From contig JAGYOK010000001.1 of NCBI GenBank assembly GCA_018399685.1, positions 62,001-126,000 of the forward strand: a stretch of DNA of 64,000 nt, in the 5' to 3' direction. The translations under genes and the position numbers were made by a program. Shown here piece after piece: positions 4,426 through 23,053 of this stretch. The notes beneath the pieces were generated by a model. That model did no database searches. It had not been told where the DNA came from and was given only the letters and a program-made list of their open reading frames with translations. This DNA comes from Alphaproteobacteria bacterium (GTDB taxonomy: Bacteria; Pseudomonadota; Alphaproteobacteria; Micavibrionales; Micavibrionaceae). Positions within the stretch are counted from its first letter, which is position 1, and every line of letters begins with the position of its first letter.

Positions 4426-4800
4426 ATGAGAGGGATTAAAAAAGAACCAGTTTTGGGATGTATTAATGATGACATCCCTTTGTCTGAAATTATTGCGATA
4501 AGCTCAAGTATGGTTGATGAATACACAGAGCATGTGGATGTTTATGTTGACTTTCGGGGTAACGGTAAATTAATTGAAGATCCCATAGAGAACGATCAGG
4601 CTTTTGCCGCAAATCTGGAACAAGTTAAAAAAGACTTATTGGAAAAGGGTATGTTATTGGAATTACTAATAGCCCCTAATGGTAAAGAGTTATGGGTTAA
4701 CAAAAATTTTGTACCAACAGTAAAACAACAGTTTAAATCCAGCCAGGAATTGGAAGACGCATGTTCTGATAAAAATTTACCTGTTTTTGTGATTATGTAA
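4426..4800 (+). CDS. Hypothetical protein
   Basis: About 124 aa ORF on the opposite strand between rnr and topA; coherent acidic composition; no family recognised. Confidence 0.55.
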   Translation: MRGIKKEPVLGCINDDIPLSEIIAISSSMVDEYTEHVDVYVDFRGNGKLIEDPIENDQAFAANLEQVKKDLLEKGMLLELLIAPNGKELWVNKNFVPTVKQQFKSSQELEDACSDKNLPVFVIM

Positions 4801-4849
4801 TAAAATGTAGTGGTTCCTACTTGATCTGACAGCCTCAGCCTCGTTTTTG

Positions 4850-7429
4850 TTATTTAGAAGCACTTTTCTTTTTCGTCGCAGTTTTTTTCTTCTTACTGGC
4901 AGTGGTTTTTTTCTTCTTTTTCTTCGACTTGGATTTTGTTTCTTTTCCTTCAGCTTTAGCAATCTTCGCTGCTTCACGAGCGGCGCGTTTTTCAGCGCCA
5001 AGAGCTAGCACTTCAACCGCGCGGTTCATGCCAACATGCATAACGTCATCGCCTTTAGGCAAGGATGTAAATGTGCCCTGATGTTTCAAGAACGGACCAA
5101 AACGACCAATGCCCGCTTGAATCATCTCGCCTGTCTCCGGGTGCTCACCCACATCACGCGGCAGCGATAACAGCCCCAAAGCTAGATCCAAAGTTACATC
5201 TTCGGCGTTTGTTCCAGCGGCCAGACCCTGACGCTTCGGCTTAGGTAAAGCCTTTTTCTTTGGCTTTTTAGGAGCTTTTTTATCAGCTTTTTTGGCCTCT
5301 TTGACCTTCTTCTCATGTTCTTTTTCGGCTTGACCGTTCAAAGCCTCAACCTCGGCCACGGCCTCAGGAGCCGGATCAATTTGTACATAAGGGCCATAAG
5401 GGCCACGGCGCAGCGATACTGTACGGCCACTATCAGGATCATTTCCTAGAATCTTGGGCTCATTTGCCAGCGCAGCCGTTTCGGCATCCTCACCATCAGG
5501 AGCAACCAGAGCTCTGGTAAATTTACATTCAGGATAATTAGAGCACCCAATAAAAGCACCAAACTTACCGAGTTTAAGCCCCAAGCGGCCTTCTTCTAAC
5601 TTTTCATCATCGGCACAAGCTCTACATTTGCGCGTTTCATTACCTTCGGGGAAGAAGTGAACACCAAGCTCGGCATCCAGGTGGTCAATAACATCGGTTA
5701 TTGTAAGGTCTTTGGTTTCATCTACAGCCGCCTTAAAGTCTATCCAAAACAGGCGAATAGCTTCCTTCCATGCTACATGCCCCGAAGCAATCGCATCCAG
5801 CTCTTCTTCCAGATTGGCCGTGAAATCATAATCGACATAGCGGGCGAAGAACTTGGCCAGAAATGTTGTAACCAGTCTCCCACGATCTTCTGGCACAAAG
5901 CGCCGCTTTTCCATGGTTACATAATTACGATCACGCAAGACTTGCAAAATAGACGCGTATGTTGACGGGCGGCCAATGCCCAGCTCTTCCATTTGCTTAA
6001 CCAGCGAGGCCTCACTATAACGCGGCGGAGGCTGAGTGAAGTGTTGATCTGTAGAGGTGTTAATAAGCTTCGTTGGATCACGCTCTTTCATCGGTGGCAA
6101 GACGCGGTCTTTTCCATTTCCGTTTCCATTTGTTTCATCATCATCTTTATCTTCGTGATAAAGCGTCAAAAAGCCGTCAAAGGCAATAACCGAGCCATTT
6201 GCCCGCAAAACCACATCATCTGTTCCATCCGCAATATCGACCTTCACCTGATCGAGTACGGCATTTTCCATCTGCGAAGCAACGGTGCGCTTCCAGATCA
6301 GATCATAGAGCTTCCACTGGTCTTCTTCGAGCCTGCCACGCATCATCGAAGGCGTACGTGTTAGATCAGTCGGACGAATAGCTTCGTGTGCTTCCTGAGC
6401 ATTCTTGGCCTTGGACTTATAAAGTCTTGGCGTATCTGGAAGGTATTTATCCCCGTATTCTTTAGTAATTATGCTACGACATCCGGCAACAGCTTCATTC
6501 GATAAGGTAGTGCCGTCGGTTCTCATATAGGTGATTAAACCGCCATCATCATTACCTTCGTATAATCTTTGAGCCAACCGCATGGTACGTGACGCCGACA
6601 TACCCAATTTACGTGAAGCATCCATCTGTAAGGTCGAAGTAATAAACGGAGCGGGCGGAGTTCGGCGAACCTGTTTCTTCTCAATTTGTTGAATTGAAAG
6701 CTTTTTACCTTCAATGCGAGCTGCCGCGGCTGTTGCTGCCTCTTCGGTTCCAATATCAAATTTATCAAGCTTATTTCCCGCCAAATGCGTTAGCCGCGCG
6801 GTAAACGGTGCACCATCAGAAGTATGCAGCAGTGCTTCAATGCTCCAGTATTCCTGAGGCTTGAAAGCTTCGATCTCTGTCTCACGCTCACATATCAAGC
6901 GCAGAGCAACAGATTGCACACGCCCGGCAGAACGGGAGCCGGGGAGTTTCCGCCATAAAACCGGAGAGAGATTAAACCCAACCAGATAATCCAAAGCCCT
7001 CCGAGCCAGATAAGCATCAATTAAAGGCTGATCAAGCCCCCGCGCATTCTTGAACGCATTTTGTACAGCCGCCTTTGTGATCTCGTTAAAGGTCACACGG
7101 TGTACGCCTTTGCCTTCCAAAAGACCTTCTTCTTTCAAAATTTCATAAATGTGCCATGCAATAGCTTCTCCCTCGCGGTCAGGGTCGGGAGCTAGATACA
7201 ATGCATCAGCCGTTTTCAGCGCTTTTTTGATATCTCGCAGCGTTTTGTCGGCGCGATCCCCCATCTGCCATTTCATAATGAAATCGTCATCAGGAAGAAC
7301 CGAGCCATCCTTATTAACCAGATCACGAACATGCCCGTAAGAAGCAAGTACCTCATAATCCGTGCCTAAATATTTGTTGATAGTTTTGGCTTTAGCTGGT
7401 GATTCAACAATGACGAGATTTTTACTCAA
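4850..7429 (-). CDS. topA: DNA topoisomerase I
   Basis: 859 aa; MSKNLVIVESPAKAKTINKYLG Toprim start, PDPDREGEAIAWH, GLITYMRTDG, zinc-finger and TopA C-terminal repeats, Lys-rich tail. Confidence 0.97.
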   Translation of the reverse strand: MSKNLVIVESPAKAKTINKYLGTDYEVLASYGHVRDLVNKDGSVLPDDDFIMKWQMGDRADKTLRDIKKALKTADALYLAPDPDREGEAIAWHIYEILKEEGLLEGKGVHRVTFNEITKAAVQNAFKNARGLDQPLIDAYLARRALDYLVGFNLSPVLWRKLPGSRSAGRVQSVALRLICERETEIEAFKPQEYWSIEALLHTSDGAPFTARLTHLAGNKLDKFDIGTEEAATAAAARIEGKKLSIQQIEKKQVRRTPPAPFITSTLQMDASRKLGMSASRTMRLAQRLYEGNDDGGLITYMRTDGTTLSNEAVAGCRSIITKEYGDKYLPDTPRLYKSKAKNAQEAHEAIRPTDLTRTPSMMRGRLEEDQWKLYDLIWKRTVASQMENAVLDQVKVDIADGTDDVVLRANGSVIAFDGFLTLYHEDKDDDETNGNGNGKDRVLPPMKERDPTKLINTSTDQHFTQPPPRYSEASLVKQMEELGIGRPSTYASILQVLRDRNYVTMEKRRFVPEDRGRLVTTFLAKFFARYVDYDFTANLEEELDAIASGHVAWKEAIRLFWIDFKAAVDETKDLTITDVIDHLDAELGVHFFPEGNETRKCRACADDEKLEEGRLGLKLGKFGAFIGCSNYPECKFTRALVAPDGEDAETAALANEPKILGNDPDSGRTVSLRRGPYGPYVQIDPAPEAVAEVEALNGQAEKEHEKKVKEAKKADKKAPKKPKKKALPKPKRQGLAAGTNAEDVTLDLALGLLSLPRDVGEHPETGEMIQAGIGRFGPFLKHQGTFTSLPKGDDVMHVGMNRAVEVLALGAEKRAAREAAKIAKAEGKETKSKSKKKKKKTTASKKKKTATKKKSASK

Positions 7430-10381: not shown

Positions 10382-10891
10382 TTAAAACAACCCTTGTATG
10401 AATGTGTGGTATTTGAGTGCGGCACAAACAATAATTCCAACAATAAAGCCCGGTCCCGCTGGGATAGAAAGAGTGTTAAACGGAACCTTTTTCTTCATCA
10501 CAAAACGCGAATAAAAAATAATACCTAAGCCATGAAAAACACCCGCCAACGCACCAAGTGCCATGGCAAGGAAAATATATTCGCTACCCAGCCATATTCC
10601 TGCCGCTCCGATGAGCTTAACATCGCCAATACCCAGTGTATCAATGCCATAAAACTTGTTTCCAAAGCTGCGAATCACTAATAATAGACTACTGCTTAGA
10701 ACGGTGGCTATAAACAGATCCAGGGGGTGAGCTTCGCTAAAACCACTTATAATATGAAAAGCCAGACCGGCAAAAAAGAACTGGAGGACATAACGATTCG
10801 GCAGCAGGCGCGTCTTCAGGTCTATACAAAAAAGCAAAACCAAAATAAAAAGAGAATAAATTATTACAGATACTAAGGCGAAAGAGGTCAT
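10382..10891 (-). CDS. Prepilin peptidase, A24 family (CpaA-like, no N-methylase domain)
   Basis: 169 aa multi-TM; DLKTRLLPN and GIGDVKLIGAAG match the catalytic Asp motifs of A24 peptidases. Confidence 0.88.
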   Translation of the reverse strand: MTSFALVSVIIYSLFILVLLFCIDLKTRLLPNRYVLQFFFAGLAFHIISGFSEAHPLDLFIATVLSSSLLLVIRSFGNKFYGIDTLGIGDVKLIGAAGIWLGSEYIFLAMALGALAGVFHGLGIIFYSRFVMKKKVPFNTLSIPAGPGFIVGIIVCAALKYHTFIQGLF

Positions 10892-10913
10892 AAATTGTGT
10901 TATAACACAATTT
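10892..10913. promoter_or_regulatory. Perfect 22-bp palindrome abutting the prepilin peptidase start codon; candidate operator
   Basis: AAATTGTGTTATAACACAATTT is exactly self-complementary and lies in the divergent intergenic region. Confidence 0.6.
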
Positions 10914-11025
10914 GTTTGTTATTAAGATTCTATTTACGCTTCATTTATGATGTCCGTCATGTAATTTTGTGACTGATAAAAGATGCAGAAAAAGCTATAA
11001 ATTAACTACAGGATGATAGATTAAA

Positions 11026-11397
11026 GTGAGCCAGAAAAATATTCTTGTTATTGAAGATAATGATTTTGTTCGAATGCAGCTTTGCCGCTTTTTGATCGAT
11101 GAAGGGTTTGAAGCGCTCGAAGCAATCGATGGAGAGCAAGCACTTTATATTCTGTCTGGTAATAGCATTGATATGATCGTAGCAGATGTGCGCATGGAAC
11201 CAGTAAATGGTTTTGAGTTAATCAGCGTTCTGCGCGGGCAGGGAAACAAAACACCGGTTCTTGTTGTCACAGGTGATGAAAATGCTGATATTCTAAGCGA
11301 GGCTTCCAGGCTAGGTGTTGCGGCGGTACTAAAGAAACCGGTACAAAAAGAACGGTTGATTAAATCAGTTTCACGTATTTTGAACGTGGAAAAATAA
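11026..11397 (+). CDS. CheY-like response regulator receiver protein
   Basis: IEDND, VADVRM phospho-Asp, VVTGD, LKKPVQ; single REC domain, GTG start. Confidence 0.92.
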   Translation: MSQKNILVIEDNDFVRMQLCRFLIDEGFEALEAIDGEQALYILSGNSIDMIVADVRMEPVNGFELISVLRGQGNKTPVLVVTGDENADILSEASRLGVAAVLKKPVQKERLIKSVSRILNVEK

Positions 11398-11469
11398 GAT
11401 GCCGGATGCTACATTTAAAGACGTGTTTGAATTAATGTCAGATATAAACGACAAGGTTTAGAGGTTAGT

Positions 11470-12906
11470 TTGCTGCTATCAGTGAGGAGTTTCTCCTCGG
11501 TTTTCTTATTATATTTATTTGGCGCGCTCTTGGGGTTGGGGGCGTGCTCACCCGTAGATATACCTGGTGCTCGCAACTTGTCGATTCCTTCCCCTACAAT
11601 GGCCGCACAGCGCAAGGATGCGGTTAATGAAAAATCCGATAGTGTTATATATTTACCACTTGGCAGCGATGTTCTGGTTCCTAAAACGGCTTCTGGTATC
11701 GGGCTGCCAAAAGAGATTGTCGGGCCGTTTGAGCTTCGCTCTGAAACTGTGGCAGGCGCGCTACAGTTGATCTTAGCCGACTACGAAGTCTCGATGGCTT
11801 TTGAAAGTGATGAGGCATTTTCTCGCACAATTACCGTAGCAAATTTGCACGGGCCGCTCAGTAGAGTGGTGAAGCGTGTATGCAGTCTGGCTGATTTGTA
11901 TTGTTCTTATGATGACGGGTTGCTGGTTGTTAAGGAAACTCAAACATTTACTGTTACCGTACCCCCTGTAGGAGGAGAGACAGATATTTTGAGTTCTTTG
12001 GCAACCGGGGTTCAGGCAATTACGGGAACTTCTCCCATTACCGAATCTTCAACCCGCACCATTATCTATGAGGCCACGAACAGAACGGCAGAGCTTGCGG
12101 AGCGTTACTTTCAGCGAGTACGGGCGAGTACGGCATTGATTGTCTTCGAGGTCTATATTTGGGAAGTTTCATTGAATAGTGGAAATTCTACAGGAATTGA
12201 TTGGGAGGGTATAGATTCTATCGGAAAATATACAACAGGCATAAACATTTCCGGCGGAGCTAATGCTAACTATTCACCAATCAGTATAGGCCTTCCGACA
12301 ACGGGAGGGTTCTCCTTCGGATCAAACGATGTTTTTGAGTTTATATCTTCATTCGGCGCTGTTAAGACAATTTCACAGCCGCAAATTACCGTACTTTCTG
12401 GGGCTCAGGCAAGTTTACGTGCGGCAGATACGGTGAATTACGTGTCTGCACTCACGCGTTCAACTGATAACGGAGAGGTGACTGTTTCTACGGAAACTGA
12501 TTCGGTAGATACAGGGTTTACGCTTACTATTTCAAGTAACTGGGACAATGCAACGGTTTATGGAACCATTAAAATTTCTTTAGAGGAATTTAGAGGCTTC
12601 CAGAATTTTGATGCAGACGGCACAACGCTGCAATTACCTGAAACTACCGAAAGAGAGCTTTCAACACAGGTTCGGATCCGTCCCGGTGATTCGTTGCTGA
12701 TAGCAGGATTGGTGCGGGAAAGTGATGAGTTTAGCTCTGATGGTATCGGATTCGATATGCCGTTTTTTCCAACATCCAGAACTGCTGAAAAAGCAAATAC
12801 AGAGCTTGTATTTCTTCTAAAACCACGTGTTATAGTATACACATCCGAGGGTGTTGGCAGTGGTGGTGGCAGTGAAATATATGCCGATGATATGAATCGC
12901 TATTAG
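11470..12906 (+). CDS. Type IVb pilus/T2SS-like lipoprotein secretin (PilN-type)
   Basis: Lipobox-like LGLGACSP; secretin core (SQPQITVLSGAQASLRAADTVNYV, VRIRPGDSLLIAGLVRES, ELVFLLKPRVI). Start TTG 11470 or GTG 11482 uncertain. Confidence 0.88.
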   Translation: MLLSVRSFSSVFLLYLFGALLGLGACSPVDIPGARNLSIPSPTMAAQRKDAVNEKSDSVIYLPLGSDVLVPKTASGIGLPKEIVGPFELRSETVAGALQLILADYEVSMAFESDEAFSRTITVANLHGPLSRVVKRVCSLADLYCSYDDGLLVVKETQTFTVTVPPVGGETDILSSLATGVQAITGTSPITESSTRTIIYEATNRTAELAERYFQRVRASTALIVFEVYIWEVSLNSGNSTGIDWEGIDSIGKYTTGINISGGANANYSPISIGLPTTGGFSFGSNDVFEFISSFGAVKTISQPQITVLSGAQASLRAADTVNYVSALTRSTDNGEVTVSTETDSVDTGFTLTISSNWDNATVYGTIKISLEEFRGFQNFDADGTTLQLPETTERELSTQVRIRPGDSLLIAGLVRESDEFSSDGIGFDMPFFPTSRTAEKANTELVFLLKPRVIVYTSEGVGSGGGSEIYADDMNRY

Positions 12907-13141
12907 ATCCTGACCTTAAAATTTCTATCATTATTTTGAGGGGTAATGTGCAAGGATATGTATCCTAAAGTATATAACGTACAGCGGAAATACCTTGTAT
13001 AGACCACGTACAGACGCCAAATAAAACTATTTTTCCACATATATGTGATATATTATCTTTTTTGGTTACAAATCCCTATGTTTCTGTAAATATTGTGTAT
13101 AATAATAAGGGGTTATTGCTGTCCACAAAAGTTCAATAAAG

Positions 13142-14758
13142 ATGCGTTCGCACAAGTTTAAAATAATTGCTTTTTTTATTATCGTCTTAGCTATAATTCT
13201 GGACGCAGAAGGTGCTTTTGCACAGTATAGGGGTTTTGATTCACCAACATCACGTATGTCTGGTGGATCATCTTTCGGACTAATTCCCGTCAAGTCATTA
13301 ATTGACGGAGGATCGATCCCTGTTGGTGCTTCTGCACAAGTCGTTGTTTTATTCCGCAACGAGGGGGCGCAGGATGTTGAGACAGGTCTTATAAACCTGT
13401 ATCCGTCTTCAAATATAACCGCGGATATTTCGCTAAACCAGTGCGCAACCGGCCTTTCTTCCGGCGCTGAGTGCGCTGTAGCTATATCGGTAAAAGGGCT
13501 GCAAGCAGGAGCATGGCGCCTTGAAATGCTTATGCGCCATTCAGGGCGTACTCGGCTTGTAACTGCAACAGTTTCAGGCAAAGTGGAGGCCGGTTCAGAT
13601 AGCTCAAATCGCCTTTCTAGTGATATTGAGGCTATCCCGGACAGTCTGGATTTTGGTTCACTTAGCTCCAGCCAAACCCTGATCAAATCGATTATTTTGC
13701 GCAATACAACATCCAGTACTGTTAATATCTCCGAAGTCGCGATGAATGCCGCCGATAGTGCCGGTTACGTTGTAGAAACAGACTGCTCTGAGTTAAAAGC
13801 GGGGCAGGCGTGTATTGCAACAATTGTCTGGGCTCCGAAAAGAACCGGCCCGGCTACCGGTGTTCTTATTATTCGTCATGACGGGCCAACAGCATTAACC
13901 AGCATTGCAATAAAAGGTGAGTACAAGCCTGATGATGTGGAAGAGGCCGAAGGATTTCCTGAAGCAGTACCCGGGCGCGGTCTCCTTGTGTCTTCCCAAA
14001 CAGAATTTGATTTTGGTGATAACATTTCCTCAGCCTCAACAATGACGGTTTCGCTTGTTAACACAGGAGATACTGCGTTGACATTGGGAGAGGTTAAGAT
14101 TTCTGGTGGTGATAATGGTTTAACACTGGCCAACACAGGCTGCTCTGAAGGTTTGGAGTTAAACCCTATTGAAGCCTGCCCTCTTACTTTGACATGGTCG
14201 CCAACGCGTCTGGGTAGTGTCGTTGACGATGTTCAGGTTGTTCACAATGGTGCGCGTGGCATTCTTGTTCTTCCCGTGAGAGGGGAAGCAACAGCAACAG
14301 TAAGCCAGGATCAAAAGGCAATTGTGATTAGCTCGAATGGTAAAAGGGTGCAAAGCGTGGTTAGTAATGAAAATGCCAAGTCTTCAAATGATAATTCCGC
14401 AACAAAGGAAGCTGAAAAGACGAAGACTTCTAAAAAAGCAAAGCCTGCCACTTCTGCATCTTCTTCAACAAGTTCTATGAATTCATCAAGCGCCCTTGAC
14501 GGCCTTGTTATCACATCTTTTTCAGCAAGCCGGGCAATAGTAAATGGCCCCGGGGGGAGCCGTCTGGTGTTTGATGGTGAACCTATTATGTTTGGCGGGG
14601 TTATATGGGATGTAAGTATCCAGAAGAATGGCATTGAGTTTATTAGCGAAACAAGCCGTGTATTACTTCTGTTTGATCGTTCTTTGTCTTCGGTTAATCG
14701 TGTAACCGGGCAATCCTCCAATAGCAAGTCTTCAAGCTCTTCATCGTCCGGTGGCTAA
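13142..14758 (+). CDS. Secreted protein with about three ASH-like beta-sandwich repeats, Ser-rich linker and C-terminal PilP/GspC HR-like domain
   Basis: Signal peptide; repeats with DFGSLSSSQTLIKSIILRNTTSS / DFGDNISSASTMTVSLVNTGDTALTL and paired Cys; C-term DGLVITSFSASRAIVNGPGGSRLVFDGEPIMFGGVIWDVSIQKNGIEFI. Confidence 0.65.
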   Translation: MRSHKFKIIAFFIIVLAIILDAEGAFAQYRGFDSPTSRMSGGSSFGLIPVKSLIDGGSIPVGASAQVVVLFRNEGAQDVETGLINLYPSSNITADISLNQCATGLSSGAECAVAISVKGLQAGAWRLEMLMRHSGRTRLVTATVSGKVEAGSDSSNRLSSDIEAIPDSLDFGSLSSSQTLIKSIILRNTTSSTVNISEVAMNAADSAGYVVETDCSELKAGQACIATIVWAPKRTGPATGVLIIRHDGPTALTSIAIKGEYKPDDVEEAEGFPEAVPGRGLLVSSQTEFDFGDNISSASTMTVSLVNTGDTALTLGEVKISGGDNGLTLANTGCSEGLELNPIEACPLTLTWSPTRLGSVVDDVQVVHNGARGILVLPVRGEATATVSQDQKAIVISSNGKRVQSVVSNENAKSSNDNSATKEAEKTKTSKKAKPATSASSSTSSMNSSSALDGLVITSFSASRAIVNGPGGSRLVFDGEPIMFGGVIWDVSIQKNGIEFISETSRVLLLFDRSLSSVNRVTGQSSNSKSSSSSSSGG

Positions 14759-14806
14759 CCGGTAAGAAGGGTAATATTGTTTTTATGAAAAATCTGGGTC
14801 AGTGTA

Positions 14807-16615
14807 ATGAGTGAGAACCCTCCATCACAGGAGCCAAATAACGAAGCGCCTAAAGCGCCTGGCGAAGAAGTAAAAGCCTCTCTGGCAATAAACCCTGACA
14901 GGGGTGCTATGACCAGAGAGCAATTAGCAATACGTCGTCGTGAGAAGGCAAAAGAGGGACGTGAGCGTTACCTAGATATGGTTCAACGCGAGCGTGTAAT
15001 GTTGCTGGAGCAGGGAATTGCCCGCTCTACGGAGCAGCTATTGGATATGGCCGGTGCGGTCACTTCTACAGAAGACGATGAAGAGGCAATTAAAGATCGC
15101 GCTACCGGCGATCAGTTGCGCTCTATTTTACCGGTCCAATCATGGCTCCCGCTGCGTATCCATTTGATAGGATTAAAAGACGGTGTTTTGACTATTGCGC
15201 CATTGTACGAGATGCAAGATCGCCAGATAGAGGCGCTCATGTCTACGGCAAAGCGCAGTGGTTTCCGTGTGGATAAGGTGGAAATCGAGATATGGGATCG
15301 TAAAGAGCTTACCGACACCCTGCGGGCTGTGCATGATTTGTCCGCCGATCGGTGTGAAAAAACACTTTCTCAATGGCTTGGAGATATTGATAATGGCCTG
15401 CTTTTAAACCAGTTTCAGCGTGACATGCTGGCAGAAGCTTTGCAAATGCGCGCATCCGACATTCATCTTGTACATGATAATACCCCCGAAACACCAAACT
15501 GGATTCAATACCGTATCGATGGGGATTTGCTGCCGATGCATCTTTTGCCCGCCGATTCGATGGCTCGTTTGACAACATTGCTCAAAAGGGATGCAGGGCT
15601 GAACTTTGGTGATCGTGTTACCCCGAAAGACGGACGCTTTGGGTTTCAATGGCAGGGACGCTCTATTGATGTTCGTGTGGCCGCTGGGCCGCATGCTCAG
15701 GATGGTGAAAAGATTACTTTGCGTTTGCTTGATCGTGCATCACTAAAAGGATTTGATGACCTTTTCCGTCGCCATCTGGACGTTGCGGATTCTTTATCAA
15801 AACTTCTTTCTCCGGAAATCAAAGGTGCGGGCGGATTGATTTTGCTATCCGGGCCGACCGGCTCTGGTAAAACAACAACGCTCTACGCGTGTGTTCAGCA
15901 TATTGACAGGCGCCGCAAACATGTACTTACGATTGAAGATCCGATTGAATATGAACTGCGTTACGCTACGCAATGGCAAGTTAGGCACGGCATGGCCGGT
16001 GGAGAATTTGCAGATCTGATCCGCGCTGCCATGCGTCATGACCCTGATTATATTGTTATCGGGGAAATGCGTGACCCTGATACAGTAGAGACATCGCTGC
16101 GCGCCGCGGAATCCGGGCATACTGTTATTTCTACGGTGCACGCAGATACTGCTTTGCAAACTTTTGAGCGCTTGCGCTCACTCATCCCCGCCACGCGTGA
16201 GCGTTCATCAACCTATACATTGGCGCAACAGGTTGGAGCCATTTTAAACCAGCGGCTGGTACGAACACTTTGTCAGGGTTGTGCACACACAAAGAGGGCG
16301 GGCGAGGTACTAAGCCCGGATATTTTAGAGCATGTTGGTTTGGACAAGAATCAGGAAGTACGATTACATAACTCTAGCGGTTGTGATCTATGCAGCCGTA
16401 CAGGTATTTCAGGCCGAACACTTCTTCTGGATGCATTATTGATTAATTTACCCCCTTCGCAGCGTAACGAGATATATGAGGCTTTGTTGCTTAATGTTAA
16501 CAATATTAAAAATATCGACGGGGTTTTGGTTTATTCGCGTAAAGATGGTTTACTGGATCTGGTCGTTTCAGGGATGGTCGATCCGATTGCCGCAATTTCA
16601 TATCTTGATGAATAA
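14807..16615 (+). CDS. GspE/PilB/PilQ-type secretion/pilus assembly ATPase
   Basis: Walker A GPTGSGKTTTLYA, IEDPIEYEL, VIGEMRDPDTVETSLRAAESGHTVISTVHA, C-terminal CxxC...CxxC. Confidence 0.95.
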   Translation: MSENPPSQEPNNEAPKAPGEEVKASLAINPDRGAMTREQLAIRRREKAKEGRERYLDMVQRERVMLLEQGIARSTEQLLDMAGAVTSTEDDEEAIKDRATGDQLRSILPVQSWLPLRIHLIGLKDGVLTIAPLYEMQDRQIEALMSTAKRSGFRVDKVEIEIWDRKELTDTLRAVHDLSADRCEKTLSQWLGDIDNGLLLNQFQRDMLAEALQMRASDIHLVHDNTPETPNWIQYRIDGDLLPMHLLPADSMARLTTLLKRDAGLNFGDRVTPKDGRFGFQWQGRSIDVRVAAGPHAQDGEKITLRLLDRASLKGFDDLFRRHLDVADSLSKLLSPEIKGAGGLILLSGPTGSGKTTTLYACVQHIDRRRKHVLTIEDPIEYELRYATQWQVRHGMAGGEFADLIRAAMRHDPDYIVIGEMRDPDTVETSLRAAESGHTVISTVHADTALQTFERLRSLIPATRERSSTYTLAQQVGAILNQRLVRTLCQGCAHTKRAGEVLSPDILEHVGLDKNQEVRLHNSSGCDLCSRTGISGRTLLLDALLINLPPSQRNEIYEALLLNVNNIKNIDGVLVYSRKDGLLDLVVSGMVDPIAAISYLDE

Positions 16616-16639
16616 GATTAGTTTTTTAGGTAGCAATAT

Positions 16640-17860
16640 ATGCAGCAATGGTTAGTAGAAATAGCTTACGAAACACGTACAGGTGCTAAAAAAGTGACGG
16701 AAGCTTTCTTTTTGCCCACCATTGATGATGTGCGCGCTGCTGTGACAAAAAAAGGAGGATATGTCTTAAATGTTCGCCCTTATTCTCGTTCTCCGTTGGA
16801 GCGCCTTCTGGCTAAATCCACATGGTGGCAGGTACGGCTTTTGCGTGGAATTCAGTTCAGGACACAAACGGCTTCGCCAGGTGTGGCACTGTGGAAAATT
16901 ATTCAGGCAGAAGATAATCCGCGCAGGCAAAATATTTTGGCACCTGCGAGGGAGGCTCTCACACGCGGCCTTGGCGTTATAGAAGCGCTTAAAGCTTTGA
17001 ATATCTTTGATCATGGAACATTGGCTATTTTAGCGGGTTCTGAACAGGCTAACAAGCTTAGTGAGGGGATCCCTCACGCTATCCAATCCATCACTGAAAA
17101 ACGAAAAAATACCCGTGCAGTGGTCGGGACGCTTGCATGGCTAGGATTTGATGTGTTCTCTATCGTTAGTTCCCTGTGGGCAGGTAAAGGGATGGTCTTA
17201 AGCTGGTTTAGAGACAATAGACCAGTAGATCCAGTGGAGCGCGAAAGTTTTGATCTTGTAGTAAATAATCTGGAAATCATATGGGATGTTCTTATATGGG
17301 TCGCAGTATCTTTTGGTGTCATTATGGCGTGGTGTGTTTTTTCATTTTGGATAAACCGCGGAAAAAAAGACTGGCCTACAGCCAGATTTGTTAGGATTAT
17401 TCCATTGATCGGCTCTTATTTGCGAGATCTGGCTTTTGCCGATTCAATGATGGCAGCTGCGCGTATGATACGTGGACGTGTGCAAATTGACATTGCTTTG
17501 AATCAATCAGAAGAGGCCTCCAGCGTACCGGAAGTGGGAGAATACTGGCGGGAAGCATCCAAAAATCTCGATCGTGGTATTGGCCTTGGAGTTGCTCTTG
17601 ACCGGAAACCTCTAAGACGTAGCGAGCGCCTTGAATTAGCAGGCTTGTCCGATCTCGGACAAGTTGCTACAGTCATGGAATCAATTGCCGAAATGAGGGC
17701 ATCTTCTGCAAGAACCAGACACAAATTCATCGTTTGGATTGCATTTGCTTTGACAGGCGTATTCCTTGCGGTAGCTTTCGGTAGTGCTATTTACGCTCTA
17801 ACTGTTATGAATATGAGTATGGATTCTATGATGGGTGGTTTGATGCAAGGAGCTATGTAA
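16640..17860 (+). CDS. GspF/PilC/PilR-type inner-membrane platform protein
   Basis: 406 aa, TM segments at about 175 and 205-230 and the C-terminus, GspF-like repeats, located after the ATPase. Confidence 0.82.
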   Translation: MQQWLVEIAYETRTGAKKVTEAFFLPTIDDVRAAVTKKGGYVLNVRPYSRSPLERLLAKSTWWQVRLLRGIQFRTQTASPGVALWKIIQAEDNPRRQNILAPAREALTRGLGVIEALKALNIFDHGTLAILAGSEQANKLSEGIPHAIQSITEKRKNTRAVVGTLAWLGFDVFSIVSSLWAGKGMVLSWFRDNRPVDPVERESFDLVVNNLEIIWDVLIWVAVSFGVIMAWCVFSFWINRGKKDWPTARFVRIIPLIGSYLRDLAFADSMMAAARMIRGRVQIDIALNQSEEASSVPEVGEYWREASKNLDRGIGLGVALDRKPLRRSERLELAGLSDLGQVATVMESIAEMRASSARTRHKFIVWIAFALTGVFLAVAFGSAIYALTVMNMSMDSMMGGLMQGAM

Positions 17861-17874
17861 GGATAAAGGCAAAT

Positions 17875-18948
17875 ATGGAAGAAGAAAATAAACAGCAAAA
17901 TCCGGATCAAGCAGTTGGTAATCCATTACCGCCGCTTGGTCAGGAGCAATCTCTTGGCCCGGAAAGGCAGGTAGGAGAAAACCCGACGGAAGCCCCCAGA
18001 CAAAAGGGTGTTAAACCCGGTATAGCGGACATTCTTGCCGGTGAAGCTGGCGATTTTAAGAAAAATATACAACCATATCTTCCCGGTGAGTTAATCGGCG
18101 GTTCAATCCCCCATGTTTATGGTACAGAAGATGAAGCGGTCTGGAATGCTGCATCACAAGCATGTGGGACAGAACGTGTGCACTATGTTTATTCAGTTGA
18201 TGGAGGACGTATATGGTATTTGGCTTGCCCTTCATCATCATTATCCTCAAACCCTGATAGCTGGTGCCCTCTTGCTGCGGCTTTACCCGGAAACAGCGAA
18301 CATTGGGATAAAGAAACGGTCTATCTTTATGAACAAGAAGGTATGGCTTCAGCGCTAAGATGGGATCCAGAAACAGGACGCATGCAAGTATTCCTTGGCG
18401 CCACACGTACCATTTTGCCGCGTATGCAAAGTATGGACGCAAATTTTGTAACGATTAACCCGGAATCTGCCAGCATCGCTTTATGGCGTAACAGGATGCT
18501 TCACACCGAAAAACTATCCAGAGCTGTTATACGTGTGCTTATTCTTATGGGCATGGGAGTAAACGCTGTTGCTATGTTTGTATTGTTTTTCAGCGTTCTT
18601 TCCGTTGCCTTTATTCACGGTAACTTAAATAAAATCAAAGAAGAAACAGATCAGGCTGCGTTTAAGCTTATGGAGAATGCGGCCGAGGTGATGCAAAGCG
18701 ATACAATCAGACATATGGCAAGGGTTCAGAATCTGTTGGATAATCTTGCACAGGCGAACGGCTATCTGGTAAGATACGAAGTTTCAGGGAAACGCACAGA
18801 TTGGAATGCTGTTGTTCCGACCGCGTTGTCGGATCAGGCACGCACAGATACAAGCTATATAGATGTTGTAGGAAGTAGCGTGAGAAAACACGTGCCTAAA
18901 GTTACAAAAGAAGATGAGGACAACGTCCGTCTCATAGGGAATAAATAA
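17875..18948 (+). CDS. Bitopic pilus-assembly candidate (large cytoplasmic domain, one TM, periplasmic coiled coil)
   Basis: 357 aa; TM VLILMGMGVNAVAMFVLFFSVLSVAF followed by a predicted helix; position suggests a PilN/PilO-like role; no family recognised. Confidence 0.6.
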   Translation: MEEENKQQNPDQAVGNPLPPLGQEQSLGPERQVGENPTEAPRQKGVKPGIADILAGEAGDFKKNIQPYLPGELIGGSIPHVYGTEDEAVWNAASQACGTERVHYVYSVDGGRIWYLACPSSSLSSNPDSWCPLAAALPGNSEHWDKETVYLYEQEGMASALRWDPETGRMQVFLGATRTILPRMQSMDANFVTINPESASIALWRNRMLHTEKLSRAVIRVLILMGMGVNAVAMFVLFFSVLSVAFIHGNLNKIKEETDQAAFKLMENAAEVMQSDTIRHMARVQNLLDNLAQANGYLVRYEVSGKRTDWNAVVPTALSDQARTDTSYIDVVGSSVRKHVPKVTKEDEDNVRLIGNK

Positions 18949-18990
18949 ACTTATATAACATGTTGTTGTAATTATATTATTGGTAGAAAA

Positions 18991-19533
18991 ATGGATACAA
19001 AGAAATTTAATTTTATAAATCTTAATTATAAGGCATTTGTAAAATACCTAAATCCAAGATCGTTTAGCAATCTTGATGTTTTTCTTGAATCTTTGCCCCA
19101 AAACACAAACAAAGCTTTGTTAATAATAGCGGCGGCAGTGTGGGTGTCTGCCGGTATTCTGGGACTATCTGCCACTATAAAAATGCAGGAAGCTGCACAA
19201 TTATCAGTAGAGCGTCGGGAGGCCAAGGTTTTGTTGCCTGCCGTTCCCAGAATTCAGGATAAGCCGGTGGAGGCGAGGGATGTTATGGCTTTTGTGGATG
19301 AGTTACAGAAAACATACAAAGGCCTTGAAATCAAAGGGGGTTCCTCTAATATTACTGTGACCGCAAAATCAACGTCCATGTTTGGTGAGTTTCGTGAGGC
19401 CATCGGACATATCCAAAACGGAGGTCTTGGCTGGCGTGTGAACGTGGATAAACTGTGTGTAGGAAAAGAGTGTAATCCTAATCCTCTCACTGCTTCGTTA
19501 AAAATTAATAAGGTCTCTGTTGAAAAAGAATGA
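18991..19533 (+). CDS. Bitopic protein, PilO-like candidate
   Basis: 180 aa; one TM (ALLIIAAAVWVSAGILGLSATI), heptad-like segment, small periplasmic domain with two Cys. Confidence 0.6.
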   Translation: MDTKKFNFINLNYKAFVKYLNPRSFSNLDVFLESLPQNTNKALLIIAAAVWVSAGILGLSATIKMQEAAQLSVERREAKVLLPAVPRIQDKPVEARDVMAFVDELQKTYKGLEIKGGSSNITVTAKSTSMFGEFREAIGHIQNGGLGWRVNVDKLCVGKECNPNPLTASLKINKVSVEKE

Positions 19534-19581
19534 TATGAGATGTTTGGGGTTATTTCCTAAGGGAAAGAAAGTAGTGAATTA

Positions 19582-20316
19582 ATGTGTAAGAGCCGTTTTG
19601 ACAAGGTTATAGGAGGGAGTCAGCACGCTAATCAAAGCGGTAATGTTCTGTTTCTTATCCTTATTGCTGTGGCACTATTTGCGGCTCTTTCATACGCTGT
19701 GACATCTTCTACACGTACGGGTGGTGGCGCCGCCAGTAATGAAACAAATTTGATTAGCTCTGCCCAGATCACACAATACCCTGCTGCTGTAAGCACTGCT
19801 GTTATTCGTATGGTAATCTCCGGCGTATCCGTTGATGAAATTCGTTTTAATCGTCCTGAAAATGATGAATTTGATGATCTGGATTCAACAAATATAGGAG
19901 TTTTTCACCCAAATGGCGGTGGGGCATCATATATTCCTGCACCTGAGGATGTTATGGCTGATGGCCAACCCGGCGACTGGACTTTTAACGCAGAAATGGA
20001 AGTCCCGGAAATTGGCCTGTCCGGTATTGGCGGAAACGATATAATCGCTTATCTCGTAGGGTTGCGTAAATCTATTTGCATGAAAATTAACGAAGAATAC
20101 GGTATAGGTTCCACAATACCTGAGCTTGAAGGTGGAAACTCCGCCAATTTTGAGGTTCGTATGTATGACGATGGCACCAACGATTATGAAATACCAGAGG
20201 ACGACGTCCCCGATATTGATGATGGCTCGGGAACTTTTGATGGCCAACCCTTCGGCTGTTTTCAAGATGGTGGTGGCGGTAATTATGTTTATTATCACGT
20301 CGTTTTGGAGCGCTAA
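19582..20316 (+). CDS. Type IV pilin-like protein lacking Glu5
   Basis: QSG|NVLFLILIAVALFAALSYAV prepilin-like leader/TM; paralogous to 54002-54712. Confidence 0.75.
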   Translation: MCKSRFDKVIGGSQHANQSGNVLFLILIAVALFAALSYAVTSSTRTGGGAASNETNLISSAQITQYPAAVSTAVIRMVISGVSVDEIRFNRPENDEFDDLDSTNIGVFHPNGGGASYIPAPEDVMADGQPGDWTFNAEMEVPEIGLSGIGGNDIIAYLVGLRKSICMKINEEYGIGSTIPELEGGNSANFEVRMYDDGTNDYEIPEDDVPDIDDGSGTFDGQPFGCFQDGGGGNYVYYHVVLER

Positions 20317-21095
20317 TGAAAGCTTCATTGGGTAATTATATTAAAATGAGATTTTTTTGTAATTCAGGAAAAGCAGCTGTTATTATAGATAAAGAGAATC
20401 AGCGCGGAAGTGCTCTTGTATATATTCTTATCGCTATTGCTCTGTTGGCTGCATTGACCGTAACTTTTATGGGTTCATCTAGCCAGCAGACATCTTCGCA
20501 AAACTCCTTCCGACTGATAACAGATTTACGTAGTCGTATCGATATAATTCGTTCTGCTGTGCAGGAATGTGTTTTGTCTTATCCAAAGGGTGATTTGACG
20601 ATTGATAACGATGCCTCCGGTACGGATCCTTACGCACGCCGCAATTTTCCAATTAAACCAAATTCCACACATTTCAATGGTGCGGCTATAGGCCCGACAA
20701 CAGGGCAACTTGCTGCTGACATTCGTTGCCCTGGTAATCCGGGAAGTGATAATAATCATGCATTAATATTTAAGAGCACATCAGGGAAATTCTTACCTCC
20801 GCCGCCGGAAATGTTTAAACCTTGGCAATATTACAATGGCGCAGATGGCGTTTATTTTTGGACTAGAACAGAAAAAACAGACGCATATATCATATCAGCG
20901 TTGGACAAACTTGATGATCAGTTTGGAGAATGTGAGGCTGATGTAGTGGATGCAACAAGCGGAGCCGTTGATCTGGATAGTAACGGGGAAACACGCTGTG
21001 AAGGAGGTTTCCGCTGTTTTCGTATACGTATGACCATTAGCAATACAGCTATATATAATGGTGACAGCGATAACGACGAAGCTGCTTGTCCATAG
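20316..21095 (+). CDS. Type IV pilin-like protein lacking Glu5
   Basis: QRG|SALVYILIAIALLAALTVTFMG; TAATG overlap with the preceding pilin gene. Confidence 0.75.
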   Translation: MKASLGNYIKMRFFCNSGKAAVIIDKENQRGSALVYILIAIALLAALTVTFMGSSSQQTSSQNSFRLITDLRSRIDIIRSAVQECVLSYPKGDLTIDNDASGTDPYARRNFPIKPNSTHFNGAAIGPTTGQLAADIRCPGNPGSDNNHALIFKSTSGKFLPPPPEMFKPWQYYNGADGVYFWTRTEKTDAYIISALDKLDDQFGECEADVVDATSGAVDLDSNGETRCEGGFRCFRIRMTISNTAIYNGDSDNDEAACP

Positions 21096-21097
21096 GA

Positions 21098-23053
21098 TTA
21101 TCTCGGAAATAGTCGCTTGATATCCAAAATAACCCGCGAAAATTCATTATTGATTTCTTCCACACATGCTGAACAATTATCCTGCGTGTTGCTGTGATTT
21201 TGTAAACGGGAAGCAAGATCTCCAAGTTGCTTGCAGCAAGCTGAACGCGCTGCGCCTTTTAAACTGTGCCCCAAATCAGATAAGAGCTTTCCATCACCGT
21301 TTTTAAGAGCTTTATTAATTTTTTCTATTAGTGGTGCGGTCATATCAATGAACATATACATCATGTCTCTCGTACCTTTATCCATAGCGCCGATTTGCTC
21401 AAGTAGACAATTTTGGTCAATGGATGGCGTTTCAATTTTAGGATATGTTTTATTTTTAGGTTTATACGGACATTCTTCAATGTTTAGCAGACACCAACGG
21501 ACGAGCAGTCCTCTAAGCTGACCAATTGTAACAGGCTTCAAAAGATACTCGTCAAACCCGTAATTTATATAATGCTCGCGCTGAGTAAGCTGCACATCTG
21601 CTGTCAAAGCTATTATAGGAATATCTTTGCTGACCATGGCATAACCATTTCTGATAATGCTGACCAGTTCGTATCCATCCATTTCAGGCATATGTAGATC
21701 GGTAATCAGAATATTGTAATTTCCTTTTTCAAGGTGCTCCAGCGCCTCTTTTCCGTTACTAACGAAATCAGCATCACAGCCCAAATGTTCCAGTTGTCTG
21801 CGGATTATTTCACGCACACTGTCAGTATCTTCCGCTACAAGCAATTTAGCATTATCTTCAATCATAGCCTTGTTCTGGGTTGCCGCACTTTTGACAGCCT
21901 CCCCTAAACCACGGCGGCTGGCCGGTTTGGTAATATATTGAGCACCCAAGGAATGTAGACTATGCGCCAACCCGACATCATCACGCACTGTATACATAAT
22001 CAGGCCGATATAAGGGCGCAAAACGGTAAGCTCGTGCATCAGATCAAGGCCAAGCCCGTCAGGCAACCCCTGATCAATAACCGCAACGTCAAAAGGACTT
22101 TGTAAAGCCATTGTCATAGCTTCATTACAGGTCGAGCATTGTTCTACTCGCGCCCCCATAGAGCGCAGCGAAGTCACGATTTCCCTGGCGCCTTGTGGAT
22201 GATCCTCTATTGATAGAACTGATATTCCCTCCAGATTAGGCAACTCTACGCGCTCTTCGTCCGTGCTAATTTCTTCGGTGGGGATTTCAAACCAGAATAT
22301 TGATCCTTGCCCTTCGGTACTTTCAACGCCGATTTTCCCTTCCATAAGTTCGACCAGCTTCTTGGAAATGGATAAACCAAGCCCAGTACCGCCATATTTA
22401 CGCGAGGTTGTATTATCCGCCTGAGTAAATGAGGAGAATAGCTTACCGCATACTTCATAAGGGATGCCTATTCCTGTATCAATAACCTCAAAGCGCAAAA
22501 CCAGAGCGCCTTCGGGTACCTTGATATGTTCTGCCACTGTACTAACCCGCACTGTAACACTACCTTCATGGGTGAATTTAAGCGCATTGCCACATAAATT
22601 CATAATGATCTGGCGCAAACGTTTTGGATCTCCAAGTACTACAAAAGGGACATCAGTTCCAATGTCATCAATAAGCCGTACATGAGCGCCGCGCACTTTG
22701 ACGGATAAAGCCTCCAATATACCGCGCACAAGCAGGCGCACCGGCACTTCATAAATGTCTAGTTCCATCGCTCCGGCATCCATTTTTGCCACATCCAGCA
22801 CATCATCGAGAATTTCCAGTAAGCCGCTGGATGCATTTTGTGCAGTTTTAACCATAGAGGCTATTTTTTCACTTGGTTCTTCTTCGGCAATAAGCTCCAG
22901 CAAACCATAAATTGTTTGCATGGGTGTGCGAATTTCATGGCTTATAGTTGCTAGAAAATTGGATTTTTGCTGCGCCAGTTCATCAGCTTCCGCTACGGCT
23001 TGCTTTAAAGCGGCGATTGTATCTTGCGTATTTATTTCTTTTTCTGGTGTCAT
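21098..23053 (-). CDS. Cytosolic hybrid sensor histidine kinase (HisKA-HATPase-REC-REC-Hpt)
   Basis: [45 protein letters not shown], two REC domains, Hpt motif [10 protein letters not shown]; no TM segment seen. Confidence 0.93.

What the first reader, a model, noticed from the sequence alone, without database searches (positions are those of the whole stretch)
10382..21095. Compact, divergent type IVb-pilus/T2SS-like machine
Contiguous genes encode a minimal A24 peptidase, lone CheY-like regulator, lipoprotein secretin, ASH/HR-like protein, ATPase with tetracysteine motif, GspF-like platform, two bitopic proteins and two pilin-like proteins. No canonical FTLIEL pilin, PilT or Tad-type genes are present. 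Order roughly follows R64 PilN-PilQ-PilR, but the accessory subunits look different from textbook systems.
Basis: partly seen in the sequence, partly recalled or inferred. Interest (0 to 1): 0.72.

Follow-up and report, generated by a model that had tools for sequence, protein, structure and literature searches.

The report
Unnamed pilus machine of Micavibrio predators
Bacteria of the Micavibrio order, which includes predators of other bacteria, carry a conserved set of genes for a hair-like surface filament whose motor and outer-membrane gate form their own branch of the type IV filament family and whose subunits all lack a residue found in almost every known filament-forming subunit.

Summary
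The gene cluster is real. The window is a Micavibrionales MAG. The ordered nine-gene set cheY–secretin–ASH–ATPase–GspF–orf7–orf8–pilin1–pilin2 is intact in 44 of 52 loci with full flanks, and the platform gene occurs in 103 of 142 order genomes at 59–87% identity.

The "odd" bitopic proteins are standard roles in divergent form. Predicted structures match orf7 to PilO2/BfpC/GspL (both domains) and orf8 weakly to PilO/GspM. The ASH protein ends in a P-like domain. So this is a complete type IV filament assembly machine, not a fragment.

Yet it fits no described subtype. It scores far below every curated cut-off. In ATPase and secretin trees it forms its own 100/100 clade. Nesting inside the sampled T4bP is rejected (AU p = 0.001 and 1e-9); being sister to T4bP is not (p = 0.14). 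Relatives occur in a few other alphaproteobacteria, some inside VirB operons, and on two betaproteobacterial conjugative plasmids. Every pilin examined lacks Glu5; pilin1's first 21 mature residues are identical in 58 of 61 loci.

Best reading: a chromosomal contact or adhesion pilus related to conjugation-associated pili, probably regulated by CheY and the adjacent hybrid kinase. Function is untested.

The parts
10382..10891 (-). minimal A24 prepilin peptidase, 169 aa, without the N-terminal A24_N_bact domain
   Evidence: Pfam PF01478 1.1e-15 only; divergent neighbour kept in 56 of 80 named loci
11026..11397 (+). stand-alone CheY-like receiver, first gene of the cluster
   Evidence: PF00072 2.4e-23; first gene in all complete loci
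11470..12906 (+). secretin with lipobox (LGAC), outer-membrane channel
   Evidence: PF00263 5.5e-19; MshL 96 bits and PilN 85 bits, both far below cut-offs; own clade 100/100
13142..14758 (+). periplasmic ASH/Ig-domain protein with C-terminal P-like domain (possible secretin-inner membrane linker)
   Evidence: PF15780 4e-17; homologous ASH proteins align to the small P protein of VirB-linked relatives, hhalign probability 80%
14807..16615 (+). extension ATPase of GspE/PilB type with tetracysteine motif
   Evidence: PF00437 2.6e-79; own clade 100/100
16640..17860 (+). GspF/PilR-like inner-membrane platform
   Evidence: T2SSF 6e-5, below cut-off; 59-87% identity for full-length matches across the order
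17875..18948 (+). orf7: bitopic GspL/BfpC/PilO2-type assembly protein (actin-like cytoplasmic domain, TM helix, periplasmic ferredoxin-like domain)
   Evidence: AF2 pLDDT 87; PilO2Bp Z 8.4, BfpC Z 7.0, PulL C-ter Z 8.0 rmsd 2.1
18991..19533 (+). orf8: bitopic GspM/PilO-type protein
   Evidence: AF2 pLDDT 85; PilO Z 6.6, XcpY/EpsM about 6, tied with unrelated ferredoxin-like folds
19582..20316 (+). pilin1: prepilin, cleavage G|NVLFLILIAVALFAALSYAVT, Leu at mature position 5
   Evidence: 58 of 61 loci identical over 21 residues, residue 5 Leu in 61 of 61
20316..21095 (+). pilin2: prepilin, cleavage G|SALVYILIAIALLAALT, Tyr at mature position 5
   Evidence: pilin1 and pilin2 profiles related, hhalign 96.6%; residue 5 Tyr in 51 of 51 readable loci
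21098..23053 (-). convergent hybrid histidine kinase (HisKA-HATPase-REC-REC-Hpt), possible partner of the CheY protein
   Evidence: Pfam; neighbour in 70 of 80 named loci

Best explanation
The cluster encodes a complete type IV filament assembly machine of a distinct, unnamed lineage. SHOWN by computation: prepilin peptidase, two prepilins, extension ATPase, platform, GspL/BfpC/PilO2-type and (weaker) GspM/PilO-type assembly proteins and secretin are all present and inherited together across Micavibrionales. INFERRED: the linked A24 peptidase cleaves pilin1 and pilin2 at the conserved Gly; the ATPase, docked on the orf7 cytoplasmic domain and the platform, extrudes a filament whose core is the near-invariant pilin1 helix, with pilin2 as minor or tip subunit; it leaves through the secretin, tied to the inner membrane by the ASH/P-like protein and orf7/orf8; the adjacent CheY and hybrid kinase switch production or activity. 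There is no dedicated retraction ATPase in the locus, so it is probably extension-only or borrows PilT/PilU of the separate pilus system. Most likely use: a cell-to-cell contact or adhesion pilus derived from, or sharing ancestry with, pili that assist conjugation, kept by these bacteria for holding prey or surfaces.
For: Ordered nine-gene set in 44 of 52 full-flank loci; platform in 103 of 142 order genomes. Structures of orf7 and orf8. ATPase clade 100/100 and secretin clade 100/100, with the same two sub-clades in both trees. Nesting inside the sampled T4bP rejected, p 0.001 and 1e-9. Conjugation link: in three other alphaproteobacterial genomes the cluster lies next to VirB8/VirB9 and, where the contig reaches far enough, VirB10/VirB11 or coupling-protein genes; in two betaproteobacteria it lies on conjugative plasmids; IncI2 plasmids show the same pattern for R64-type pili. 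pilin1 N-terminus 97% identical against 52% for the rest.
Against: No experiment shows a filament. The lineage's link to conjugation is by gene neighbourhood in sister lineages, not in Micavibrionales: VirB9 is sporadic in the order (20 of 142). Several well-assembled genomes lack the platform gene (none in genera g8, g19, g34), so the machine is not essential to every member and a role in predation is only a guess. orf8 structural matches (Z about 6) are within the range of unrelated folds. The P-like reading of the ASH C-terminus is weak from the Micavibrio profile alone (4.9%).
Confidence: 0.72

Rival explanations
1. It is an early-branching member of the type IVb pilus group (R64/BFP/TCP), rather than a separate lineage.
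For: orf7 has the T4b-type PilO2/BfpC fold; secretin scores T4b PilN and BfpB; sister position to the T4b ATPases not rejected, p 0.138; clustered genes, peptidase without the methylase domain as in R64/IncI2.
Against: Nesting within the sampled T4b is rejected; T4b rows form their own 100/98-100 clade in both trees; different order; no Glu5, whereas PilS-type pilins have it; no PilV/shufflon.
Confidence: 0.35
2. It is a type II secretion system that exports hydrolases or toxins into prey.
For: GspE/GspL/GspM-like parts; the M. aeruginosavorus genome paper reports a 'functional' T2SS although GspCGHK are missing (PMC3189940), which may partly be this locus.
Against: GspE score 238 bits against a cut-off of 630; T2SS sister position rejected at p 0.017; no GspG with Glu5, no GspHIJK set.
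Confidence: 0.1
3. It is an accessory arm of the near-universal Dot/Icm-like T4SS of the order (thin pilus plus T4SSb, as on IncI plasmids).
For: DotH in 132 of 142 order genomes; in one genome (L119) DotI-DotH-like genes begin about 500 bp after pilin2; R64 precedent.
Against: Only one genome with adjacency; genomes with one and not the other exist both ways (G027-029, G096-098 against G064, G106).
Confidence: 0.12

Closest known systems
R64/IncI1, IncI2, IncK2 thin pilus (T4bP: PilN-O-P-Q-R-S-U-V)
   Same: secretin lipoprotein, ATPase, platform, PilO2-type actin-like protein, small A24 peptidase, link to conjugation (IncI2 sits beside a VirB system)
   Different: order (PilO-PilP before PilQ), ATPase and secretin clades, Glu5 present in PilS-type pilins, PilV/shufflon present; no ASH protein or CheY
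BFP of E. coli (BfpB, BfpC, BfpD)
   Same: secretin lipoprotein hit (9u5s, 3e-11), BfpC fold in orf7 (Z 7.0)
   Different: ATPase only 93 bits; not placed in the trees here
MSHA pilus
   Same: best NCBIfam secretin hit is MshL (96 bits)
   Different: cut-off 250 bits not met; separate 100/100 clades for ATPase and secretin
Type II secretion system
   Same: GspE/F/L/M-like core
   Different: no Glu5 major pseudopilin, no GspHIJK; sister position rejected p 0.017
Rhodoferax ferrireducens NC_007901 and Methylibium petroleiphilum NC_008826 plasmid pilus loci
   Same: Rhodoferax: pilin1/2, secretin, ATPase, platform and orf7 homologues by profile (orf8 weak); both share the order secretin-P-ATPase-F-orf7-orf8-pilins
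   Different: P protein instead of ASH protein; on conjugative plasmids; Rhodoferax has two secretins and a PPIase

Membership tests
Type IV filament superfamily | extension ATPase + platform + prepilins + prepilin peptidase (+ secretin in diderms) in one locus | tested here: met
Type IV filament superfamily | prepilin cleavage Gly followed by hydrophobic helix | tested here: met
   pilin1 and pilin2 alignments A4, A5
Type IV filament superfamily | usual but not strictly required: Glu at mature position 5 of the major pilin | tested here: inconclusive
   Glu5 absent from both locus pilins: Leu in 61/61 pilin1, Tyr in 51/51 readable pilin2; Pro, Thr, Ala, Leu or Tyr in relatives. Which pilin is the major one is not known, and an unlinked major pilin is not excluded
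T4bP (R64/BFP/TCP) | GspL/PilM-like PilO2/BfpC protein | tested here: met
   only by predicted structure, no sequence match to PilO
T4bP (R64/BFP/TCP) | ATPase and secretin nest among T4bP sequences | tested here: not met
   sister position not excluded; BFP/TCP not sampled by name
T4bP (R64/BFP/TCP) | curated PilN secretin cut-off (TIGR02520, 288 bits) | tested here: not met
   85 bits; own genome no match at 1e-60
T2SS | GspE equivalog cut-off (630 bits) | tested here: not met
   238 bits; own genome none at 1e-150
T2SS | pseudopilins GspG,H,I,J,K | tested here: not met
   two prepilins only, neither reaching a Gsp cut-off
MSHA pilus | MshL cut-off 250 bits and MSH clade | tested here: not met
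   96 bits
T4aP | PilB equivalog cut-off (676 bits), PilMNOP, PilT | tested here: not met
   227 bits; a separate locus on contig C15 carries PilB, PilT, PilU
Tad/T4cP | CpaF/TadA ATPase and Flp pilin | tested here: not met
   TadA-family score 66 bits against a 373-bit cut-off; the Tad locus is on contig C27
Any T4 filament | a filament is actually made | not testable with these tools
   needs electron microscopy

The most novel reading that the evidence does not exclude
This is a further bacterial subtype of type IV filament, beside T4aP, T4bP, T2SS, Com, MSHA and Tad, with a filament built from pilins that all lack Glu5, born in or shared with conjugation systems and turned into a chromosomal contact organelle of Micavibrio-type bacteria.
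Probability: 0.45. Interest if true: 0.78.

Novelty: new variant of a known kind. Interest (0 to 1): 0.6.

Why it matters
Micavibrio feeds while stuck to the outside of its prey, and how it holds on is unknown; this is an order-wide candidate organelle with a clear deletion test. If the pilins really form a filament without Glu5, the usual account of subunit docking (Glu5 with the N-terminal amine of its neighbour) is not universal, and a cryo-EM structure would show what replaces it. The VirB- and plasmid-linked relatives also offer a test of whether conjugation pili were the source of a chromosomal organelle.

Tried and rejected
Relatives in viral contigs (none) and, with the window's platform protein, on plasmids (none; found only via the ATPase, and the Rhodoferax platform). 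First thought that the flanking genes in L154-L156 were Dot/Icm; Pfam shows VirB8/9/10/11 and a coupling protein. hhalign of orf7 with R64 PilO, GspL and PilMN, and of orf8 with PilP and PilM, gave nothing, so the assignments rest on predicted structure. Foldseek alone gave no E under 0.001 for either model. A phylum-wide platform search gave only weak generic hits outside the class. PHROGs and Rfam: nothing informative. One T4b row (L213) in the first large ATPase tree was the wrong, PilT-like paralogue and was left out later. The MSH sister test did not finish.

Full report
WHERE IT IS. The window is part of a 2.1-Mb MAG (G000, contig C1). A scan of named genomes with the platform protein returned Micavibrio spp. 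and alphaproteobacterial MAGs, including an M. aeruginosavorus MAG (CP066681, L109), so the source is the order Micavibrionales. GC content shows no island-like break at the locus. The cluster lies beside housekeeping genes (topA, dprA, plsY, pyrB on one side, asd on the other), and most of this neighbourhood is shared by relatives.

OBSERVATION. Gaps inside the + strand run are short from the ASH gene onward (about 48, 24, 14, 42 and 48 bp, then a 1-bp overlap of the two pilin genes); about 72 bp separate cheY and the secretin gene and 235 bp separate the secretin and ASH genes (coordinates). The secretin carries a lipobox (LGAC).

CONSERVATION. The platform protein occurs in 103 of 142 order genomes, 59-87% identical for full-length matches. 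In 20 loci chosen across the order, the genes recur in one order (a few loci are partial); in 52 named loci with full flanks, 44 have all nine genes in order and strand. In the eight exceptions orf8 and both pilins are missing from the place after orf7 (seven loci), or only ASH-ATPase-F-orf7 remain together (L093); whether the missing genes sit elsewhere was not tested. The A24 gene (56 of 80) and the hybrid kinase (70 of 80) usually flank the cluster.

PARTS. orf7: AlphaFold2 on 50 sequences, pLDDT 87. Residues 64-207 align to PilO2Bp (Z 8.4), BfpC (7.0) and cyto-EpsL (6.2-6.3), residues 279-357 to PulL C-ter (Z 8.0, rmsd 2.1 over 68 residues) and XcpY; both ends pointing to the same protein class (GspL/BfpC/PilO2) makes this convincing although each Z alone is moderate. 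orf8: pLDDT 85, a transmembrane helix then a ferredoxin-like domain; PilO 6.6, PulL 6.3, XcpY 6.2, EpsM 5.7, mixed with unrelated folds of the same Z, so GspM/PilO type is likely from fold, topology and position together. The ASH protein: homologues from other alphaproteobacteria align at their C-terminus to the small P protein that sits in the same place in VirB-linked relatives (80%), which in turn matches the plasmid versions (91%). The kinase is HisKA-HATPase-REC-REC-Hpt.

PILINS. pilin1: G|NVLFLILIAVALFAALSYAVT in 58 of 61 loci; the first 24 mature columns average 97% identity, the rest 52%. Residue 5 is Leu in all; pilin2 has Tyr (51 of 51 readable). Relatives outside the order have Pro, Thr, Ala, Leu or Tyr, while R64-, IncI2- and IncK2-type PilS have Glu5. 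GspK-like tip subunits are known to lack Glu5 (general knowledge; NCBIfam GspK scores 14 bits for pilin2, below cut-off), so an alternative is that both are minor pilins and the major one is encoded elsewhere; the C15 pilin with FTLVE exists in the genome, but it is linked to its own machine.

RELATIVES AND CONTEXT. In 385 genomes of the class only 12 match, 8 of them outside the order. Five (L149-L153) are chromosomal with an ASH protein; three (L154-L156) lie in VirB operons: VirB8, VirB9, then secretin-P-ATPase-F-orf7-orf8, and in L156 pilins, VirB10 (with a weak N-terminal ASH/HYDIN-like domain, 2e-4, below cut-off), VirB11 and a PilT-like ATPase; in L154 a coupling protein and a VirB11-like ATPase follow on the other strand (L155 VirB genes by sequence likeness to L156 only). 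On plasmids the system appears in Rhodoferax ferrireducens (orf7 1e-8, orf8 0.002, pilins 1e-18 to 4e-20) and Methylibium petroleiphilum. Outside the class no chromosomal relative was found in a sample of 398 genomes of the phylum; the sample is sparse.

TREES. Against MSH, T2SS and T4b references defined by curated families and R64-type plasmids, the ATPase family is one side of a branch with 100/100, T4b 100/98-99, MSH 100/100, T2SS 100/100. The secretin tree repeats this, including the split [Micavibrio + L149-153] and [plasmids + VirB-linked L154-156], though these inner splits are less well supported there. AU tests reject nesting among the sampled T4b (p 0.001, 1e-9) and sisterhood with T2SS (0.017), not sisterhood with T4b (0.138). 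References for BFP, TCP and Com are absent and T4aP has one PilB, so 'distinct lineage' is well supported, 'new subtype' is a proposal. The T2SS secretin in the secretin tree comes from one region of an E. coli plasmid that also carries stcE; only its secretion genes were used.

LITERATURE. The M. aeruginosavorus genome paper reports T2SS without GspCGHK, three operons with prepilin signals, and no T4SS (PMC3189940). The T4F review lists six bacterial types and foresees further letters (PMC10191384); Denise et al. left many systems 'generic' (PMC6668835). Searches of the open library for Micavibrio with pili or type II secretion found no description of this cluster. Precedents for pili in predation: Bdellovibrio Flp pili, needed for predation but not for attachment (PMC5430801), and the Myxococcus Kil Tad pilus (PMC12075869, abstract).

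VERDICT. A real, complete, order-wide type IV filament machine of a distinct lineage with Glu5-less pilins; function inferred, not shown.

Noticed in passing
G000 contig C19 = L158 (DotH 4541-5701, DotB-like 17012-18169); order-wide: A Dot/Icm-like T4SS marker (DotH) is present in 132 of 142 Micavibrionales genomes, although the M. aeruginosavorus genome paper states there is no type IV secretion system (PMC3189940); another paper noted pT4SSi in seven Micavibrionales (PMC9418006).
   Followed up: partly
L119:14807-16769: In one genome (G021) DotI- and DotH-like genes start about 500 bp after the pilus cluster, an IncI-like arrangement; single case.
   Followed up: partly
L156:2260-3777: A VirB10/TrbI protein with a weak ASH/HYDIN-like Ig domain at its N-terminus, in the same operon as the pilus genes.
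   Followed up: no
L124, L131, L136, L137, L141, L142, L144: A sub-lineage lacks orf8 and both pilin genes after orf7, and loci of this kind tend to have the kinase upstream; where the missing genes went is unknown.
   Followed up: no
G000 contig C36 = L160:1387-11896: A VirB/VirD4-like T4SS gene run (VirB9 and VirB11 confirmed by family search), sporadic in the order (VirB9 in 20 of 142 genomes), probably on a mobile element.
   Followed up: partly
L168 (P. aeruginosa plasmid) and L185 (P. brassicacearum plasmid): Another divergent pilus/T2SS-like locus with radical SAM/SPASM genes next to the pilins, forming its own ATPase and secretin clades.
   Followed up: no
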